IMG/VR virus record: IMGVR_UViG_3300009537_000229
Span: 1 to 20,160 of that record
Length of the DNA: 20,160 nucleotides
DNA from: a virus
Direction: 5' to 3' (one strand)
Below the pieces are notes generated by a model. The model worked only from the letters and a program-made list of their open reading frames with translations. It was not told the origin of the DNA and searched no databases. Positions 1,481 through 11,020 of the stretch are shown piece by piece (within the stretch, counting starts at the first letter, position 1; the number at the start of each line of letters is the position of its first letter). The translations under genes and the position numbers were made by a program.

Positions 1481-2716
1481 TTAACCAGCAGCTCCAGCAG
1501 TAAGGCCAGTAATAATGGCATTGGCAGCCGGATTACGCACCACAGTAGTAACTTCAGTCGTAAGCGTACCACCCAAAGCATCAGTGCCAGTATCAGTTTC
1601 TGAATTGGCATTGAAGTCTGCGCTCTGTGTCTTACGATCACCGAGGTAGGCAAGGCTGAAAGTAGAAAGATCTACTACAATTGCCATTTTTGACCAGATA
1701 GTATTGGTATTAAACAGAGGATGTTCAATTACCCTGAAAGTACCACGGGAAGTTTTAAATGTGGTAAATTGCAGGCCCCAAGAGGTCTGACCATCCACCA
1801 TCATATAAGTACCATTCAAACGACCAATGGCATTCAATACTCGTTTGGCAGCACCACCAACAAACATCACACGTTCATTGGCAACTTTTGGGTCAGTAGC
1901 TTGATCAAATACCGGATCAAGTGCAGCTTCCAATTGCGTGTAATTAGTGGTAGACCCTGCAATAGTAGTATTTGCACTTGCGCCAGAAGGATACAGAGTA
2001 GTATCATTGATCGCAGCTACTAGACCTGCCATGGTACGGAACGGTTGACCATTTCTAGTAGACTGAGATTTCTGACCAAAGAAAATTGCTTTCTCAATAT
2101 CTGCGGCATGGAATCCAGCGCAATCTTGCTTCGATTCTGCTACGTTACTATCTCCAGCAATTACCAGCGTTGCCCGAACAGTATCAGTAATTGCCCAGCT
2201 ATTGCGGAAAATCTGAGTAAAGTTCGTAACACGCACCGGAGTAACATTCAGTGCAGTTGGACGCACAGAACCTTCTTCAAATGCATTACCTACCATCAGG
2301 TATACACCACCGCTGGTAGTGGTACCAGCAGCAACAGTACCTTGCGCACGAGAAACCACAATCTGTGTGCTAGAAATAATACTATTGATAATCACATTCT
2401 CACCGAGGTTATTAACGCCGGCGGTAGAAGAACGGAAAATCATGCCAGGAAGTAGATTAGCAGTAGAAACCACATCAAACGTAGTCTGACCTGCCGCCGT
2501 TACTGCTGCACCAAGAGTAAAGGACGGGAAAATTGCAGTCTTTGCAAAGAACCCATGCTCTACTTGTACAGCAGTTTCTGATGGAAGCATAGAAGTCATA
2601 CCAAATAGCGGTGCGCTACCATTTGGCATCAGGCGGGTGATCATGCCTGCAAATGATTTCTTTGCAAGATCAGTAGTGAAATTACTAGTAGTAAACATCC
2701 CAGTGAAAACAGCCAT
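1481..2716 (-). CDS. Major head (capsid) protein, SU10 family
   Basis: This 411-residue protein should form the icosahedral shell. It resembles the SU10-type major head protein family. The N-terminus carries an assembly arm (FTTDLAKKSFAGMITRLMPNGSAPLFGM). A beta-rich insertion follows at about residues 75-150, then the segment VTNFTQIFRNSWAITDTVRAT (about 164-184). After that come HAADIEKAIFFGQKS and NGQPFRTMAGLVAAI, both hallmark regions of the family. The C-terminal half contains the conserved VIEHPLF-type strand and ends in an alanine/threonine-rich tail. Length is as expected, and AGGAG precedes the ATG. It lies after the scaffold- and decoration-like genes in the usual head-gene order. 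A 12-bp perfect palindrome lies in its leader at 2740-2751. Confidence 0.9.
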   Translation of the reverse strand: MAVFTGMFTTSNFTTDLAKKSFAGMITRLMPNGSAPLFGMTSMLPSETAVQVEHGFFAKTAIFPSFTLGAAVTAAGQTTFDVVSTANLLPGMIFRSSTAGVNNLGENVIINSIISSTQIVVSRAQGTVAAGTTTSGGVYLMVGNAFEEGSVRPTALNVTPVRVTNFTQIFRNSWAITDTVRATLVIAGDSNVAESKQDCAGFHAADIEKAIFFGQKSQSTRNGQPFRTMAGLVAAINDTTLYPSGASANTTIAGSTTNYTQLEAALDPVFDQATDPKVANERVMFVGGAAKRVLNAIGRLNGTYMMVDGQTSWGLQFTTFKTSRGTFRVIEHPLFNTNTIWSKMAIVVDLSTFSLAYLGDRKTQSADFNANSETDTGTDALGGTLTTEVTTVVRNPAANAIITGLTAGAAG

Positions 2717-4317: not shown

Positions 4318-6348
4318 TTACACCGCCTGTCTGTTTTGAACAATATTTGATTCTGGCATACCAGAACCTCCTTGTTGTTGTGGATTATATCCAAACTGTT
4401 CTGGCGTTGGCTGCTTTGGCATGTCTTTCATAATCTTTTCAATTGTAACAGGATCAGCACCTTTTATTGCTTCTGAAAGCATTTGCATTGCATTTTGCCA
4501 CTGTGCAAGTGCTTGTTCATACGCCATTTGCTCAGGAGACTTTTCAAACTCTTGTATATGCCCACCTTGAGTTTTAATGAAATATGAAAACATTGGTGCT
4601 AGATTATACCCTGCTGCAATTTCAGGTGAAGATCCAATTACCTGCATCGCTACTTGCAATGTATCAGCATTAATTAGTTTATCTGACGGCGTAAGCCCAT
4701 CAGAGATTTTAAAGTCCAATACAGCTTTACGCAAAGCAATTGGATCAATTGTAACTTCTCTTTGCAATTCACGGTTGAATAGGCTAACTCCACCTTGGTA
4801 TTGCAATATATTAATTTTCAATATTTCTTTCACTGGTGTGAATATTTGTGATTCTAATAGTATTGAAACTATTTGATCCCTGCCGTTTGCATTAGACATT
4901 ACAGATTGAAATTCATGTAATGTCTTATTACCTTTTACAAATTGTCCTTGACGTACTGGATTCTGTCCAGAAATTACATTCCCCATCTGGAGCAAGGCTT
5001 GTGTGTCTTGCATTACAAGCTGTGATTGCTCATCGCGGAATGGTATTGGATAGTATGCTTCTTGTACTGGCTTACCATATGCAGCAGGTCTCACTGGAAT
5101 CTTTGCAGCAGGATTATCACTATTTATATGCGCTTCTGAGATTCTTGAAGGATCATAAATTCCACGATCGCTGATAGCACGGCGCCGCGCTGCGATGTTA
5201 GAATTCCAAAGAGCAGAAGTAAGATCTTGAATCGGCTGTACATTAGTTGCAAGGCTTTTAGTTTGGAATCCAAGACCATCTTCCAATGGCTGCCCTAACA
5301 GAATCGGTAAAAATCCATGAGCGTTAGTTTGTCGCTCTGCATAGATTAGTACTGAATGATTTATATAAATTAGTTTCCAGATTTGTGGAGTGTTTGGCGC
5401 AGGTACTCGTAACCCAAAATCTGAAGGTATAATTTTTGCATACAAAGTAGTAATTTCATACATATCTTTGTATTTTATTTTATTATCTTGTCCTGTAATC
5501 CCGGCCCACGCAAGCCAATTAGTAGACCTACGAGGGTCTTGATTAATCAGCGCTTCCGGATTAATCTGTGGAATGTAATATCCGCCATAAGATTGTGCAG
5601 TTGTGATACCGCTGAACCCAAGACCTGATTCGAAAGCAGGCACTATATTATCTACCATTTTATCTGGTAGTCTATTAATGAATGACTTTAATTCTACTCT
5701 AGACATTACTTCAGTATACCCTGCATACTCTCCTTTGGTATATACTTCTGTAGGATGTACTCTGGTATCAAATACTAAATTATACGGGTCTCTACGGCGA
5801 ATTGCATTACCTTCCCAAATTACTTCTTTAGGTCGTGCTTGAGTTGTTGAAAAGCTTAAATCAGTTTCAAGAGCAGCAGTTACAACACGGTCCCAAACTA
5901 CTTCCAATGCGAATAGATTATATTTAAATCCATCCCTAAATGCCAACATAAACTCGCGTGTCCAACCGCCGCGTACTGACTGATCTTCTATTACTGTTTC
6001 CATCTGTACTGCAGCATCAATAGTTTTTGGATTTGAAACTACTCCAAATATTGGATGCCCAGTAAGAAATACACTTGCTTGATATGTAACTGCTGCTTCT
6101 ACCATCGGCATTACAACAGGTACAGTTACATTCTGAAACTTTCTTGAATCACCAAGCCTGTTAGCAACTTTTGCGCGCTGATGCTCTTCTGTAAGATCTT
6201 GCTCTCGCATGTATGCAAGATCAATTTGCTGCATTTTACTTCTGATATTCCAATTTTGCGCTTGTAGATTATAGCATTGGTGATGGTATTGAATCAACGC
6301 TTCCTGTGTTTTACGAGGAAGGATCATTGGAGTATTTGGCTGGGGCAT
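4318..6348 (-). CDS. Portal (head-tail connector) protein
   Basis: The portal forms the ring at one capsid vertex through which DNA is packaged and released. This 676-residue protein has a helical N-terminal part (LAYMREQDLTEEHQRAKVAN), then a wing/core region with MVEAAVTYQASVFLTGHPIFGV, RDPYNLVFDTRVHP and the membrane-free stem region beyond. The segment TQALLQMGNVISGQNPVRQGQ and the long helix before the C-terminus fit podovirus portals of this size. The C-terminus is glutamine/glycine-rich (GYNPQQQGGSGMPESN). A spaced AAGGAAT precedes the ATG. Placement between large terminase and scaffold supports the identification strongly. Confidence 0.85.
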   Translation of the reverse strand: MPQPNTPMILPRKTQEALIQYHHQCYNLQAQNWNIRSKMQQIDLAYMREQDLTEEHQRAKVANRLGDSRKFQNVTVPVVMPMVEAAVTYQASVFLTGHPIFGVVSNPKTIDAAVQMETVIEDQSVRGGWTREFMLAFRDGFKYNLFALEVVWDRVVTAALETDLSFSTTQARPKEVIWEGNAIRRRDPYNLVFDTRVHPTEVYTKGEYAGYTEVMSRVELKSFINRLPDKMVDNIVPAFESGLGFSGITTAQSYGGYYIPQINPEALINQDPRRSTNWLAWAGITGQDNKIKYKDMYEITTLYAKIIPSDFGLRVPAPNTPQIWKLIYINHSVLIYAERQTNAHGFLPILLGQPLEDGLGFQTKSLATNVQPIQDLTSALWNSNIAARRRAISDRGIYDPSRISEAHINSDNPAAKIPVRPAAYGKPVQEAYYPIPFRDEQSQLVMQDTQALLQMGNVISGQNPVRQGQFVKGNKTLHEFQSVMSNANGRDQIVSILLESQIFTPVKEILKINILQYQGGVSLFNRELQREVTIDPIALRKAVLDFKISDGLTPSDKLINADTLQVAMQVIGSSPEIAAGYNLAPMFSYFIKTQGGHIQEFEKSPEQMAYEQALAQWQNAMQMLSEAIKGADPVTIEKIMKDMPKQPTPEQFGYNPQQQGGSGMPESNIVQNRQAV

Positions 6349-6374
6349 GGTATTATAATTCCTTCTTTAAATTC

Positions 6375-7952
6375 TTAGAATGCACAATTTAATTCTGGCG
6401 GTAATACCTGAATTGCAGTGTTCTCTTGTTGAATCATTACATTCATAGCCACTACAAACTCACCGTACATTTCTAATACCTTTGGCGCGTATGTAAGTAA
6501 GTCTAAAATGTCATCAGCATTATCTCGCCGCAGCGGATTGAATTGCATAATCTGTAAAAATACCTCAGATTTGCATTCCGGTGAAATAAACACTTCTCCC
6601 GATGATAATGCTTTAAACATATTAAGGATACGGGAGTTCTTACTAAAGCCGCCAGGATAAATTTCCACACACTCTACGCCATATATTTCCATTTGCTCAC
6701 AGATAAACTTAAACCAGTAATTCAATGTTGCTTGGTATGCTACAGATTCTACACAAATAAGACGACAGTTTTTTCGTAATGCAAACTTTAAAGCTTCTCT
6801 AATTGTTTCCCCAGGGCTATATCTTTCATTTTTTAATTCTTTTAATACTGGGAATCCATTGAATACTTCAAAGTATCCAATTGCAACTGTATCAGTATTA
6901 ATTTTTCCAGTGGCAGGGTCAATTAGAATGAAATTACCTACTGGTATGTCACCTTCTTGGTATGGTAATTCTGGAAGTTTAGAAAGATCAATTAAGTTAT
7001 TTGTACTTGCAGTTTCATCATTCAACACTTCTGCATAAAATATTTCTGGCCTTCCCATCGACACATCATTTTCATACTCTTTAAGCAATTGCTTTATTGG
7101 TTGCAAATCTTCCCAAAGAGATGTGCCATCTGCAAGAATTCCACCTGCAATAAATTTAATCCAGTTAGGATTATTCTTAAGTTTTCGTAAGATGCTAAAC
7201 TTGGTAGGATACATGTTTCCAATGAAAATGAAAAGACAGCCATGCGGAGATTTTGCTTTCATGGCAGTACCGGTCATTTCACGCTCTAGAGTTTCAGACT
7301 GGATCTGAGATTCTGCACATACTCTAGATTGTATGTCATCAAATAGCATTACATCTGGACGCTCATTTTTCAGAGAGATTCCTCGAATTACTTCTACAGT
7401 ACCTGCCATTAGAATTATATTCCTACCACGGAATCCAAATTTTTTCTGATCTAATCTCTCTGTCTCTAGCCCTAATTTCCAATCTCCGAATGTTTTAATT
7501 ATATTCGGTTCATTCAACATATCTGATACGTCTGCAATTATATTATTTGCCTTGGTTTGATTTTCACAAAGTACCAGTATAAATTTGCGCGATGTGAACA
7601 GTATGCAATACAACACAAATAGTTTCATCAGCATTGTCTTACCAAAGCCACGAGGTAAGCCTAATGCAAGCTGACTAAAATCTCTAGATTTGTGTATGTA
7701 TTCTAATAACCAAGTCCAAACTGCAAGAAACACTGGCGGAAATGGATATTGGTATACTGTAGGTACTGCAATACCAGCAAGAAAATCCAGACTTTTCTTT
7801 GACAGTTCTATTACTTGCTGAGCTTGGAAAGAAGCTTCAGTTACAGTCTGTTCTGGTACTGTATTATCTACTGTAGGATCACCGCCGGGACCCCACTTAT
7901 CTAATAAGCTTGGTTCTGCAAATCCAAGACGAGAAAGAAGAAGATTTGCCAT
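6375..7952 (-). CDS. terL: Terminase large subunit (packaging ATPase/nuclease)
   Basis: This is the motor that cuts and pumps DNA into the prohead through the portal. The 525 residues show both domains. In the ATPase domain, Walker A is LPRGFGKT (99-106) and Walker B is DVMLFDD (200-206). In the RNase H-like nuclease domain, the acidic residues are D345 in FILIDPATGK, E402 in LICVESVAYQ, and an aspartate in NADDILDLLTYA (about 480-484). Length is normal. The ATG lies 3 bp after the Acb2-like gene stop and has no visible Shine-Dalgarno, so translation is probably coupled to that gene. The small terminase lies upstream in the same operon. Confidence 0.92.
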   Translation of the reverse strand: MANLLLSRLGFAEPSLLDKWGPGGDPTVDNTVPEQTVTEASFQAQQVIELSKKSLDFLAGIAVPTVYQYPFPPVFLAVWTWLLEYIHKSRDFSQLALGLPRGFGKTMLMKLFVLYCILFTSRKFILVLCENQTKANNIIADVSDMLNEPNIIKTFGDWKLGLETERLDQKKFGFRGRNIILMAGTVEVIRGISLKNERPDVMLFDDIQSRVCAESQIQSETLEREMTGTAMKAKSPHGCLFIFIGNMYPTKFSILRKLKNNPNWIKFIAGGILADGTSLWEDLQPIKQLLKEYENDVSMGRPEIFYAEVLNDETASTNNLIDLSKLPELPYQEGDIPVGNFILIDPATGKINTDTVAIGYFEVFNGFPVLKELKNERYSPGETIREALKFALRKNCRLICVESVAYQATLNYWFKFICEQMEIYGVECVEIYPGGFSKNSRILNMFKALSSGEVFISPECKSEVFLQIMQFNPLRRDNADDILDLLTYAPKVLEMYGEFVVAMNVMIQQENTAIQVLPPELNCAF

Positions 7953-7955
7953 GCA

Positions 7956-8183
7956 CTAGAAAAAAGTAGGCTTAGCAATTGCTCTTGTGAGTGCCATCAA
8001 TCCTGTTTGCAAATCGGTAGCACCAATAGAAACCCAACGCTGATCAAATATTGAATCAGAACGCAAACTGGCAACTATATCTCCTAGTTTGACGCCAAGT
8101 TCTTTCACCTCATTCATCTTTGCAATTTCTTCAGCATTCAATTCCCTGTAGCCTTTTATTTCTCTGTGCTGGTTATCCATCAT
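7956..8183 (-). CDS. acb2: Acb2-type cyclic oligonucleotide sponge (anti-CBASS)
   Basis: Acb2 proteins bind the cyclic di- and trinucleotide signals made by CBASS enzymes and so block this bacterial anti-phage defence. This 75-residue protein shows the family pattern: IKGYRELNAEEIAKMNEVK, then DQRWVSIGATDLQTGLMALTRAIAKP. Two adjacent ATGs (8183, 8180) can start it; GGAG is 4 or 7 bases upstream. With the second ATG as residue 1, the tyrosine of GYR is Y11 and the lysine of NEVK is K26. As I recall, these are the ligand-binding residues reported for the PaMx33 Acb2. The small helical-hairpin size fits. It lies between the small and large terminase genes and is probably expressed with them. No CBASS genes are in the window. 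Confidence 0.85.
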   Translation of the reverse strand: MMDNQHREIKGYRELNAEEIAKMNEVKELGVKLGDIVASLRSDSIFDQRWVSIGATDLQTGLMALTRAIAKPTFF

Positions 8184-8215
8184 ATTTCTCCAAAGTATGA
8201 AATTAAAATTATCCC

Positions 8216-8416
8216 TTATCTACTCTCTACTCTCTTACTCACAGTACTGTCTCCCAAAACCCCGAGCAAAAGCAATCTAGCAGCTTCTTTATTCGCTGCA
8301 AGCAATTGCTTTCTCTTCTCTTCTTGGCATTCCAATTTCTTTTTCCTCTCTATATTAGAATTTTCTGATACTTTCTTAAATATCAGAAACTCCAATTTCG
8401 AGGGCGGGGCTGTCAT
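8216..8416 (-). CDS. Small basic coiled-coil protein between terminase genes
   Basis: A 66-residue frame begins MTAPPSKLEFLIFKKVSENS at the ATG at 8416. AGGAG lies 6 bases upstream, which favours this ATG over an adjacent GTG one codon earlier. The middle part is rich in K, E, R and Q (NIERKKKLECQEEKRKQLLA) and should form a charged helix or coiled coil. It overlaps the end of the small terminase gene by 41 bp in another frame. Position suggests a packaging accessory or another counter-defence protein beside the Acb2-like gene; neither is shown by the sequence. I do not recognise the family. Confidence 0.6.
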   Translation of the reverse strand: MTAPPSKLEFLIFKKVSENSNIERKKKLECQEEKRKQLLAANKEAARLLLLGVLGDSTVSKRVESR

Positions 8417-8969
8417 CACTTACTCCTAGTCTCTTACTTTTCTCCGCACTTTTTTCTTTTACTAAGCCATCCAAAGCACCAGATTGTATTGTAAGTAAAT
8501 TCTGATCGCCAACTGTAGTAACCTGTCCATTGACATTAGTTTGAAATTTGTTCAATATTTGGATTGGCACTACTAATTGAATTACTGCTTGTTTCTCTAC
8601 TATTGCTTCTGGCGTGCTCACCCCGCGCCTTTTTGCACTATTGATTGTTTGAATTGCTTTTAGTATCTCCATTGGACGATGCATCAATGGTAAGCAATCT
8701 TTTAACCTCTCAATTAGTGTTGCCTCTAGTCCATCATACTCTGAATCAATTTTATTATACTTCGCTAAATTTTCATAGCGCAGTTCTGCTACTTTTGCAG
8801 CAAACTTCTCATCAGAAAGTAAATGACTTATCGCACCATGTGTAAGTCCAAGACTTGCTGCCACTGTAGATGCTGGAATTCCAGAACCTAACAATGCTAA
8901 TGCTCTACTCTCAGTAAGAGTTGGGGGCGGGCCGATGTGAGTGCCGGCACTTTCAGTAACTGTGTCCAT
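8376..8969 (-). CDS. terS: Terminase small subunit-like DNA-binding protein
   Basis: Small terminase recognises the packaging site on phage DNA and regulates the large subunit. This 197-residue protein has a helix-turn-helix at about residues 20-52 (ESRALALLGSGIPASTVAAS followed by LGLTHGAISHLLSD). A central helical region with KYNKIDSEYDGLEATLIERL follows, then PMEILKAIQTINSAKRRG, the kind of oligomerisation segment seen in this family. The C-terminus is polar and probably binds the large subunit. It is the first gene of the leftward operon and is followed by packaging genes. The start at 8969 has no good Shine-Dalgarno, so the exact start is less certain. A simple regulator is possible but less likely. 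Confidence 0.75.
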   Translation of the reverse strand: MDTVTESAGTHIGPPPTLTESRALALLGSGIPASTVAASLGLTHGAISHLLSDEKFAAKVAELRYENLAKYNKIDSEYDGLEATLIERLKDCLPLMHRPMEILKAIQTINSAKRRGVSTPEAIVEKQAVIQLVVPIQILNKFQTNVNGQVTTVGDQNLLTIQSGALDGLVKEKSAEKSKRLGVSDDSPALEIGVSDI

Positions 8970-9035
8970 ACTTGCTATAGTATCATCTTACTCTACAATC
9001 TCCAGAGGAGAGTCAGAGCATGGCATCTGGTATTT

Positions 9036-9069
<34 letters not shown>

Positions 9070-9211
9070 ACTTTCTTTCTATTCTCTCTATTTTTTATAT
9101 AATTTTCTTTTTTAAGGTAGGGCATGTGTAAAATTTTAGTGAAATTTGGATGTTTCCTTAGGAACCAACCCGGACGCGATCCCAAAAAGGCTTCCACCCC
9201 CGGATGCGAAT

Positions 9212-9336
9212 GGTAATACGAATCATTATCATTAGCATTAGCATTCGTACCTTGGTTCTCACCTTGATTCTCATTCTCATATGTCAAATACCATGCCAGA
9301 ATACAGTATAGGTAATGATAATGAGAACCATTACAG
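9212..9336. promoter_or_regulatory. Hexamer-rich segment with two Fur-box-like sites
   Basis: On the minus strand, 9215-9233 reads AATGATAATGATTCGTATT. On the plus strand, 9314-9332 reads AATGATAATGAGAACCATT. Each matches 16 of 19 positions of the idealised Fur-type site AATGATAATGATTATCATT. Between them the minus strand has GAGAATGAGAATC, which has Fur-like hexamers. GGTA/ACGAAT (9212-9223) also pairs with ATTCGTACC (9243-9251). The 10-mer GATAATGAGA recurs at 9317-9326 and 9382-9391. These may be Fur sites, sites for a phage protein with similar taste, or AT-rich repeats. Confidence 0.4.
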
Positions 9337-9392
9337 ATTGCCTGACATTCCCACGACATGAGATAGGTTATCACACTATGGGATAATGAGAC

Positions 9393-9408
9393 TGTTGAGA
9401 GTTCGACA
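9393..9408. promoter_or_regulatory. Operator-like dyad 1 (TGTTGA-N4-TCGACA)
   Basis: TGTTGAGAGTTCGACA is a 16-bp imperfect palindrome with 5 of 6 arm pairs. It overlaps the -35 box of the promoter at 9395-9423. Two further copies follow at 9412 and 9480. Confidence 0.65.
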
Positions 9409-9423
9409 CTGTGTTGATATATC
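9395..9423 (+). promoter_or_regulatory. Sigma70-like promoter under operator dyads 1 and 2
   Basis: TTGAGA (9395-9400) and TATATC (9418-9423) are separated by 17 bp, giving a plausible -35/-10 pair with a start near 9430. Each box lies within one of the 16-bp dyads, so a protein bound there would block RNA polymerase. The -10 matches the consensus at only 4 of 6 bases. Confidence 0.5.
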
Positions 9424-9427
9424 GACA
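9412..9427. promoter_or_regulatory. Operator-like dyad 2 (TGTTGA-N4-TCGACA)
   Basis: TGTTGATATATCGACA has the same arms as dyad 1, and its centre is 19 bp away from that of dyad 1. It covers the -10 box of the promoter at 9395-9423. Confidence 0.65.
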
Positions 9428-9479
9428 GGCAGTTAAGCGTATGATCTGTAAAGGTTTTTATGTGGTTTAGCTAGATTGG

Positions 9480-9495
9480 TGTCGAGAGTTCGACA
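9480..9495. promoter_or_regulatory. Operator-like dyad 3 (TGTCGA-N4-TCGACA)
   Basis: TGTCGAGAGTTCGACA has perfect 6-bp arms and shares its centre GAGT with dyad 1. It lies about 68 bp downstream of dyad 2, between the two candidate rightward promoters. Confidence 0.65.
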
Positions 9496-9581
9496 GTTAC
9501 TGGAGAGGTAGGGCATGGTGCAGCACGGTAAGTACTTGATTATTAAGGGAGTGTTGGACATGGTGGGTATGGCATAGATTG

Positions 9582-9590
9582 TGCTAATAT
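9582..9590 (+). promoter_or_regulatory. Candidate extended -10 promoter
   Basis: TGTGCTAATAT contains TG-N-TAATAT, with the -10 at 9585-9590. The -35 is poor (TGGTGG at 9561-9566, spacer 18). The start would be near 9597, about 45 bp before the first rightward gene. Confidence 0.4.
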
Positions 9591-9641
9591 ACTAGTGTCC
9601 GCTTGGACTATTTACACACTACAGACTGAAAGGATTCTATC

Positions 9642-10259
9642 ATGAGCGCAAGTCAATACTTTGTTGTTAAGACCACAGATGCGAAGACTGGAGAAGGACA
9701 AACCACGATTCCAATTAGCAGGACTGATGGGAAGAAAGGGAAAAGCGGATTGTGCATCGTGGTGCCAGTGGTATCAGATAGCGTTGTCACGCTAGTACAG
9801 AATGATGAACATGGGAAGCAATGGATTGCAAATCACATAGATGCAGTACGTAGTATGATCGCGTCAAAGCTGAATAAGGCTGGAGAAGTCATTACAAGCG
9901 ATAAGCTCGGTATTACAGCGATACTGGCAGCAATTAAAGAGGATACAGAGAACCAGCGCATGACTAAGGAAAGCATCGGTATATGGTTTGATGCTGACTT
10001 GGCAGACGCGATCGGTGCGAGAGTCAAGGAATTGATGACCGGAATCTCGGAGGATAAGGTAAAGGCGATTGTTGCAGGATACAAGGCACAATTCCAGTCA
10101 TTAAGCGCGAGAGATGTAAGCATGAAGGATACGGTGCGCGACCAGATGATAAGGGCGCTGGAATTGCTTGGGGAGGATTATGAATCCCCGATAGGCACTA
10201 AGGTTGCAGCTAAACTTGCCACAGTCACAGAGGCAAGTGAAGTGTTGGTAGCATTGTAA
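9642..10259 (+). CDS. First gene of the rightward block, conserved-looking, unknown
   Basis: This 205-residue protein starts MSASQYFVVKTTDAKTGEGQ after AAGGA (7 bases upstream) in a TTCTATCATG context. The N-terminal 60 residues look beta-rich (GLCIVVPVVSDSVVTLVQND). Residues 60-205 are mostly helical, with an ESIGIWFDADLADAIGARVK segment and a lysine-rich middle. There are no cysteine clusters, membrane helices or recognised catalytic motifs. It is the first gene after the operator-controlled promoter region and shares a short unit with the 55-residue gene, ending at the terminator at 10550. Base composition is more GC-rich than its later neighbours. An early regulator or nucleic-acid-associated protein is possible, but I do not recognise it. 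Confidence 0.75.
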   Translation: MSASQYFVVKTTDAKTGEGQTTIPISRTDGKKGKSGLCIVVPVVSDSVVTLVQNDEHGKQWIANHIDAVRSMIASKLNKAGEVITSDKLGITAILAAIKEDTENQRMTKESIGIWFDADLADAIGARVKELMTGISEDKVKAIVAGYKAQFQSLSARDVSMKDTVRDQMIRALELLGEDYESPIGTKVAAKLATVTEASEVLVAL

Positions 10260-10609: not shown

Positions 10610-11020
10610 ATGCATGATATTGAAAAGCAATTAGTGGTAGAAAGACTGTATGCTGAAGTATGGCAAAATTATGCCGTGGTATATGGTAATAAACTGCCAG
10701 CGATTGCGCTGCTTGACGCGGGCGCAAAAGCAGTAAAGTATGCTGGTAGGTATTGGCCCAAGATGCCTAGAGTAGAAATTAATACAGCATACTATGATGG
10801 CACAGAAAATAGTGCTACCAAGTTACGAGAAACAATAGCGCACGAGCTAGCACATCATATTACATACCATCTGTATCCAAAAGCGAAACAATGGCATGGC
10901 CCAGAATTCAAGTCAGTGATGCAGAGTATCGGATACGGAGGAAATACATACCATACAATGAGTGTTGCAAAGGCAAAGCAGATTGCAAAGGAAGGAAAGA
11001 ATGAATTGTTTAAGCTGTAA
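10610..11020 (+). CDS. SprT-like zinc metalloprotease
   Basis: This 136-residue protein has the zincin motif HELAHH (H78, E79, H82), followed by the third ligand region WHGPEFKSVMQSIG (H96). That order, HExxH plus a downstream HGxEF, is typical of SprT-like domains, which in cellular Spartan proteins cut proteins crosslinked to DNA. E79 would be the catalytic glutamate. The usual C-terminal zinc ribbon of SprT is missing, so this is a compact, catalytic-core-only form; such forms are known in phages. GAGG precedes the ATG by 10 bases. It is transcribed after the upstream terminator, so it needs its own promoter or read-through; I found no clear promoter. Its substrate in the infected cell is unknown. 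Confidence 0.8.
   Translation: MHDIEKQLVVERLYAEVWQNYAVVYGNKLPAIALLDAGAKAVKYAGRYWPKMPRVEINTAYYDGTENSATKLRETIAHELAHHITYHLYPKAKQWHGPEFKSVMQSIGYGGNTYHTMSVAKAKQIAKEGKNELFKL

What the first reader, a model, noticed from the sequence alone, without database searches (positions are those of the whole stretch)
7956..8183. Acb2-like anti-CBASS gene between the two terminase genes
The protein matches the Acb2 pattern, and its Y11 and K26 (from the second ATG) fall on the ligand-binding positions I recall for the PaMx33 protein. The gene sits in the packaging operon, so the sponge is probably made with virion proteins, and terL appears to depend on it for translation because it has no Shine-Dalgarno of its own. 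Losing the sponge gene could thus reduce packaging, which would tie the two functions together.
Basis: partly seen in the sequence, partly recalled or inferred. Interest (0 to 1): 0.7.

Follow-up and report, generated by a model that had tools for sequence, protein, structure and literature searches.

The report
Acb2 sponge gene before terminase gene
A virus of bacteria carries, wedged into its DNA-packaging genes, an ordinary copy of a known small protein (Acb2) that soaks up bacterial alarm molecules; the protein is as expected, and its place next to the packaging motor gene is a local acquisition, not a proven link between the two jobs.

Summary
ORF 7956-8183 (-) is a true Acb2: Pfam Acb2_Tad1_hairpin, 62.5 bits against a cut-off of 27; best PDB hit p26 of phage PaP2 (8h2j), E=2e-17; its predicted fold finds solved Acb2 first. 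Y11 and K26, counted from the second ATG, match p26 and are invariant in 56 homologues. It lies between terS (8376-8969) and terL (6375-7952), but a small ORF (8216-8419) stands between terS and acb2. In 93 distinct relatives of this terminase module with both genes, none has acb2 there. In most of 42 examined, that small ORF ends at or over the terL start, and terL has no Shine-Dalgarno either. So terL's missing ribosome site is an old lineage trait, and acb2 was slipped into an existing coupled junction. Whether terL now needs acb2 translation is plausible but unshown; no RNA structure hides the terL start. Acb2 in head or packaging operons is already visible in Beetrevirus, Xanthomonas PB119 and Mu-like phages. 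Verdict: new member of a known family in a mildly unusual spot.

The parts
7956..8183 (-). acb2 gene (likely start codon at 8180, 74 aa; alternative start 8183)
   Evidence: PF24729 4.1e-17; PDB p26/Acb2 2e-17; fold match to 8h2x/8h2j; alignment with 56 homologues
8187..8191 (-). GGAG Shine-Dalgarno of acb2, about 7 nt before the second ATG
   Evidence: sequence; duplex -6.4 kcal/mol
6375..7952 (-). terL, large terminase; start 3 nt after the acb2 stop (TAG TGC ATG, same frame), no Shine-Dalgarno
   Evidence: phrog_38 2.2e-45; duplex -1.6 kcal/mol
8216..8419 (-). conserved small ORF (67 aa, GTG) between terS and acb2; in most acb2-less relatives its homologue abuts or overlaps the terL start
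   Evidence: phrog_33640 0.0013
8376..8969 (-). terS, small terminase
   Evidence: upstream of terL in nearly all 43 relatives; homologous to PaMx33 ORF4, annotated small terminase
4318..6348 (-). portal protein gene
   Evidence: phrog_15554 1.3e-79
1481..2716 (-). major capsid protein gene, SU10 type, same strand as acb2
   Evidence: PF17236 1.3e-45

Best explanation
An ordinary Acb2 nucleotide sponge was acquired by one member of a podovirus-like lineage (distant kin of Pseudomonas phages PaMx33/PaP2) and settled in the late operon between a conserved small ORF and terL. It carries its own ribosome site and is presumably made with packaging and head proteins. It most likely assembles into hexamers that sequester cyclic di- and trinucleotides, keeping CBASS effectors off while virion proteins accumulate. 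Shown: family, fold, conserved pocket residues, position, absence from relatives at that junction, lack of a terL Shine-Dalgarno across the lineage. Inferred: binding, hexamer, late timing, anti-CBASS effect. terL is probably translated by ribosomes that finish the upstream gene, a role the small ORF had before and acb2 has now (inferred).
For: (family and fold). (Y11, K26 conserved; T4 Y8A is reported to disrupt cyclic dinucleotide binding, PMC12657218, and T4 Y8 aligns to Y11 if the PDB chain has one extra N-terminal residue). (absent at the junction in relatives; positive control). (small ORF ends at terL; terL lacks a Shine-Dalgarno in relatives); terminator-like sites in 6200-9800 do not exceed shuffles and none falls between terS and terL on the minus strand. 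Published: PaP2 Acb2 is a sponge of 3',3'-cGAMP (8h2j, PMC11722364); Acb2 binds cyclic di- and trinucleotides (PMC12043709).
Against: No biochemistry; host and its defences unknown. Transcription timing is inferred from gene order only. The protein lacks a 19-20 residue insertion that p26 has between its helices, though most close homologues lack it too. No structure occludes the terL start, so coupling rests on gene spacing and the missing Shine-Dalgarno alone.
Confidence: 0.85

Rival explanations
1. Hard-wired sponge: terL translation now depends on acb2 translation, so nonsense or frameshift loss of acb2 also lowers packaging, and the phage cannot easily shed the sponge when it meets a sponge-sensing defence such as Panoptes.
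For: acb2 stop and terL start are 3 nt apart and terL has no Shine-Dalgarno while most genes of the window do. T4 escaped Panoptes mainly through acb2 loss-of-function mutations (PMC12657218), so a cost on loss would matter.
Against: terL lacks a Shine-Dalgarno in relatives without acb2, so this is not an adaptation of the sponge; precise loss may restore coupling to the small ORF. No inhibitory structure at the terL start.
Confidence: 0.25
2. Acb2-family fold put to another use, for example as a small packaging accessory protein.
For: Sits in the packaging operon; acb2 genes lie near terminase genes somewhat more often than random placement predicts (6 of 26 within 2 kb, 2.4 expected, P=0.03, threshold chosen afterwards, kin not removed).
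Against: Pocket residues invariant; homologues lie beside helicases, reductases, methyltransferases, portal and capsid genes alike; absent from nearly all relatives, so not needed for packaging.
Confidence: 0.04
3. Read-through of the acb2 TAG stop makes some Acb2-TerL fusion, since both are in one frame with no further stop between them.
For: TAG TGC ATG is in frame (sequence).
Against: No relative or homologue looked at shows such a fusion; same frame is a one-in-three chance; no read-through signal was identified.
Confidence: 0.02

Closest known systems
Acb2 of Pseudomonas phages PaP2/PaMx33 (p26, gp24; PDB 8h2j, 8h2x)
   Same: 44% identity over full length, same helical hairpin, Y11 and K26, C-terminal RAIAxPxxF
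   Different: 19-20 residues shorter between the helices; the PaMx33 gene lies 19.6 kb from terL at the end of the replication genes, not in the packaging operon
Vs.4 / Acb2 of coliphage T4 (PDB 7uq2)
   Same: same fold and conserved N-terminal IKGY motif
   Different: about 27% identity; T4 Phe82, reported to stack on ligand (PMC12657218), aligns with Ala here
acb2 in Beetrevirus PM105/AV002, Xanthomonas PB119, contigs L081 and L107
   Same: acb2 inside late head or packaging gene runs
   Different: other exact positions: after the capsid gene, or just before terS; only L081 has it between a terS-like gene and terL, with another gene between
Tad1
   Same: shares the hairpin family PF24729
   Different: lacks the N-terminal beta-sheet domain of Tad1; only 74 aa

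Membership tests
Acb2 | Match to Acb2_Tad1_hairpin profile above curated cut-off | tested here: met
   62.5 bits against 27, profile 1-58 of 58
Acb2 | Long antiparallel helix pair matching solved Acb2 | tested here: met
   model pLDDT 88.6 with H16-40 and H47-69; best nine PDB hits are Acb2/Vs.4
Acb2 | Conserved cyclic-dinucleotide pocket residues (Y11, K26) | tested here: met
Acb2 | Hexameric assembly | not testable with these tools
   only single chains could be predicted
Acb2 | Binds cyclic di-/trinucleotides without cleaving them | not testable with these tools
   needs purified protein
Acb2 | Protects phage from CBASS | not testable with these tools
   needs infection tests
Tad1 | N-terminal beta-sheet domain before the hairpin | tested here: not met
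   protein is 74 aa, no strands in the model
Translationally coupled gene pair acb2-terL | Downstream start near upstream stop and no own Shine-Dalgarno | tested here: met
   3 nt between stop and start; duplex -1.6 kcal/mol
Translationally coupled gene pair acb2-terL | Missing Shine-Dalgarno specific to the acb2-bearing arrangement | tested here: not met
   terL of acb2-less relatives also lacks it
Translationally coupled gene pair acb2-terL | RNA structure that hides the downstream start | tested here: not met
   z-score 0.09

The most novel reading that the evidence does not exclude
A counter-defence gene inserted at a coupled junction makes an essential packaging gene dependent on its translation, so selection against the sponge (for example by Panoptes) is countered by a packaging cost.
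Probability: 0.15. Interest if true: 0.55.

Novelty: new member of a known kind. Interest (0 to 1): 0.3.

Why it matters
It adds an uncultured phage lineage to the carriers of Acb2 and shows the gene as a portable cassette with its own ribosome site that enters different late-operon junctions. CBASS has been reported to respond to the prohead protease of phage Bas13 (PMC12409349), and acb2-deleted phages carry capsid mutations that help them escape CBASS (PMC10419184), so making the sponge together with head proteins would be sensible timing. A cost on losing the sponge would be a testable idea about how phages keep counter-defence genes.

Tried and rejected
Acb2-terL dependence as the cause of the missing Shine-Dalgarno: rejected by relatives. 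Start-codon hiding by RNA structure: not seen. Foreign base composition of acb2: none (0.40 GC against 0.37-0.40 for neighbours). Strong terminase linkage of acb2 in general: only weak; one search looked stronger (7 of 26, P=0.005) but included PB119 and Zuri, fetched for other reasons. Host: TerL relatives in genome bins carry conflicting names (archaeon, Coxiella, Anaerolineae, Ponticaulis), probably phage contigs binned with unrelated genomes. PADLOC gave no match; megablast of the window to known phages gave none. The original Acb2 papers (Cell 2023, Mol Cell 2024, Nature 2023) are not held, so residue roles come from later papers, and K26's role rests on memory.

Full report
Observation. 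The window is a 20,160-base virus record. ORF 7956-8183 (-) encodes MMDNQHREIKGYRELNAEEIAKMNEVKELGVKLGDIVASLRSDSIFDQRWVSIGATDLQTGLMALTRAIAKPTFF. It matches Pfam Acb2_Tad1_hairpin over the full profile (62.5 bits, cut-off 27), and among solved structures the p26 chains 8h2j/8ixz and then T4 Vs.4. 8h2j is the PaP2 Acb2-cGAMP complex (PMC11722364). AlphaFold gives two long antiparallel helices (pLDDT 88.6) and Foldseek returns solved Acb2 and Vs.4 as the first nine hits. The start is probably the second ATG (8180), with GGAG about 7 nt upstream. From there Y11 and K26 are identical to the PaMx33/PaP2 protein and invariant in 56 homologues. Compared with p26 the protein lacks 19-20 residues between the helices; most close homologues lack them too.

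Surroundings. On the minus strand the order is terS (8376-8969), small ORF (8216-8419), acb2, terL (6375-7952), portal (4318-6348), a 94-aa and a 267-aa gene, a weak scaffold match and an SU10-type capsid gene. The other strand from 9642 carries a SprT-like gene, a Dda-like helicase and an AAA_24 protein. PaMx33, a distant relative by TerL (32%), has the same terS - small ORF - terL - portal order, but its acb2 is 19.6 kb from terL. So the module is shared while the sponge gene sits elsewhere.

Is acb2 part of this module? No. Of 43 viral contigs with related TerL (38-80%), none has acb2 at the junction, and of the 43 whole records only one (G018) has any PF24729 protein, a divergent one just after its capsid gene; many of these records are fragments. 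A wider scan brought this to 93 distinct relatives with both terS and terL; terS-terL gaps run from -4 to 252 nt against 423 here, and an Acb2 profile found nothing in any of these loci (positive control). The one G018 match shows that this clade can pick up Acb2-family genes at more than one late-operon site.

Is terL tied to acb2? In the window most genes have a usable Shine-Dalgarno and terL and terS do not. But in acb2-less relatives terL lacks it as well (median -1.5 kcal/mol; random sites -1.9). In 39 of 42 of them a small ORF lies between terS and terL, mostly ending within a few bases of the terL start or overlapping it, often as ATGA or TAATG; the window's ORF 8216-8419 is its homologue (best hits 6e-10 to 2e-7 in that small search). 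So terL was probably coupled to that small ORF and acb2 was inserted between the two; terL now follows the acb2 stop by 3 nt. Coupling is plausible, but it is inherited context and not a designed tie between sponge and packaging. The start region is no more structured than shuffles (z=0.09).

Is the location special? Acb2 genes sit tightly packed beside many kinds of neighbours: helicases, methyltransferases, reductases, portal, tail sheath, terminase. Late-operon sites are common: after the capsid gene in Beetrevirus PM105 and AV002, between portal and head genes in Vibrio D80, just before terS in Xanthomonas PB119 and L107, 4 nt before terL in L080, and between a terS-like gene and terL, with a lipoprotein-like gene between, in L081. 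Reading the terS-like genes of L081 and L107 as Mu-type small terminases is my own judgement from the sequence. Among 26 long viral contigs with acb2 and a recognised TerL, 6 have them within 2 kb against 2.4 expected (P=0.03, threshold chosen afterwards, kin not removed): a weak tendency at best.

Mechanism. From published work Acb2 is a hexamer that sequesters cyclic di- and trinucleotides (PMC12043709, PMC10419184). That is the best explanation here, by homology. Making it with virion proteins would fit reports that head proteins can trigger CBASS or modulate escape (PMC12409349, PMC10419184), but timing is inferred from gene order. The opposing pressure is Panoptes, which is set off by Acb2 and selects for its loss (PMC12657218); the patchy presence in this clade fits such gain and loss but does not prove it.

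Verdict. Observation confirmed; identity secure; the packaging-dependence story is weakened but not excluded. New member of a known kind.

Noticed in passing
L060:5001-5681: The Acb2 frame has no stop and runs on into a lipoprotein-like tail (AKPTFF-VALCALLFAACTSG...), a possible Acb2-lipoprotein fusion or a stop-loss.
   Followed up: no
L131:1435-1668: A relative (TerL 64% identical) has a divergent Acb2/Tad1-hairpin protein of 78 aa without the usual C-terminal PxxF, directly after the major capsid gene.
   Followed up: partly
window 8216-8419: A small conserved ORF family (42-90 aa, motif NKxAAxxLL) sits between terS and terL in most relatives and usually overlaps or abuts the terL start; function unknown.
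   Followed up: partly
window 7956-8183 (match to phrog_717): This 289-position PHROG of unknown function matches Acb2 only at positions 198-285, so some members may carry an N-terminal domain fused to Acb2.
   Followed up: no
window 10610-11020: SprT-like metalloprotease-family protein in the opposite-strand (probably early) genes.
   Followed up: no
window 8376-8969: The terS start has no Shine-Dalgarno (duplex -0.6 kcal/mol), so its start may be misplaced or unusual.
   Followed up: no
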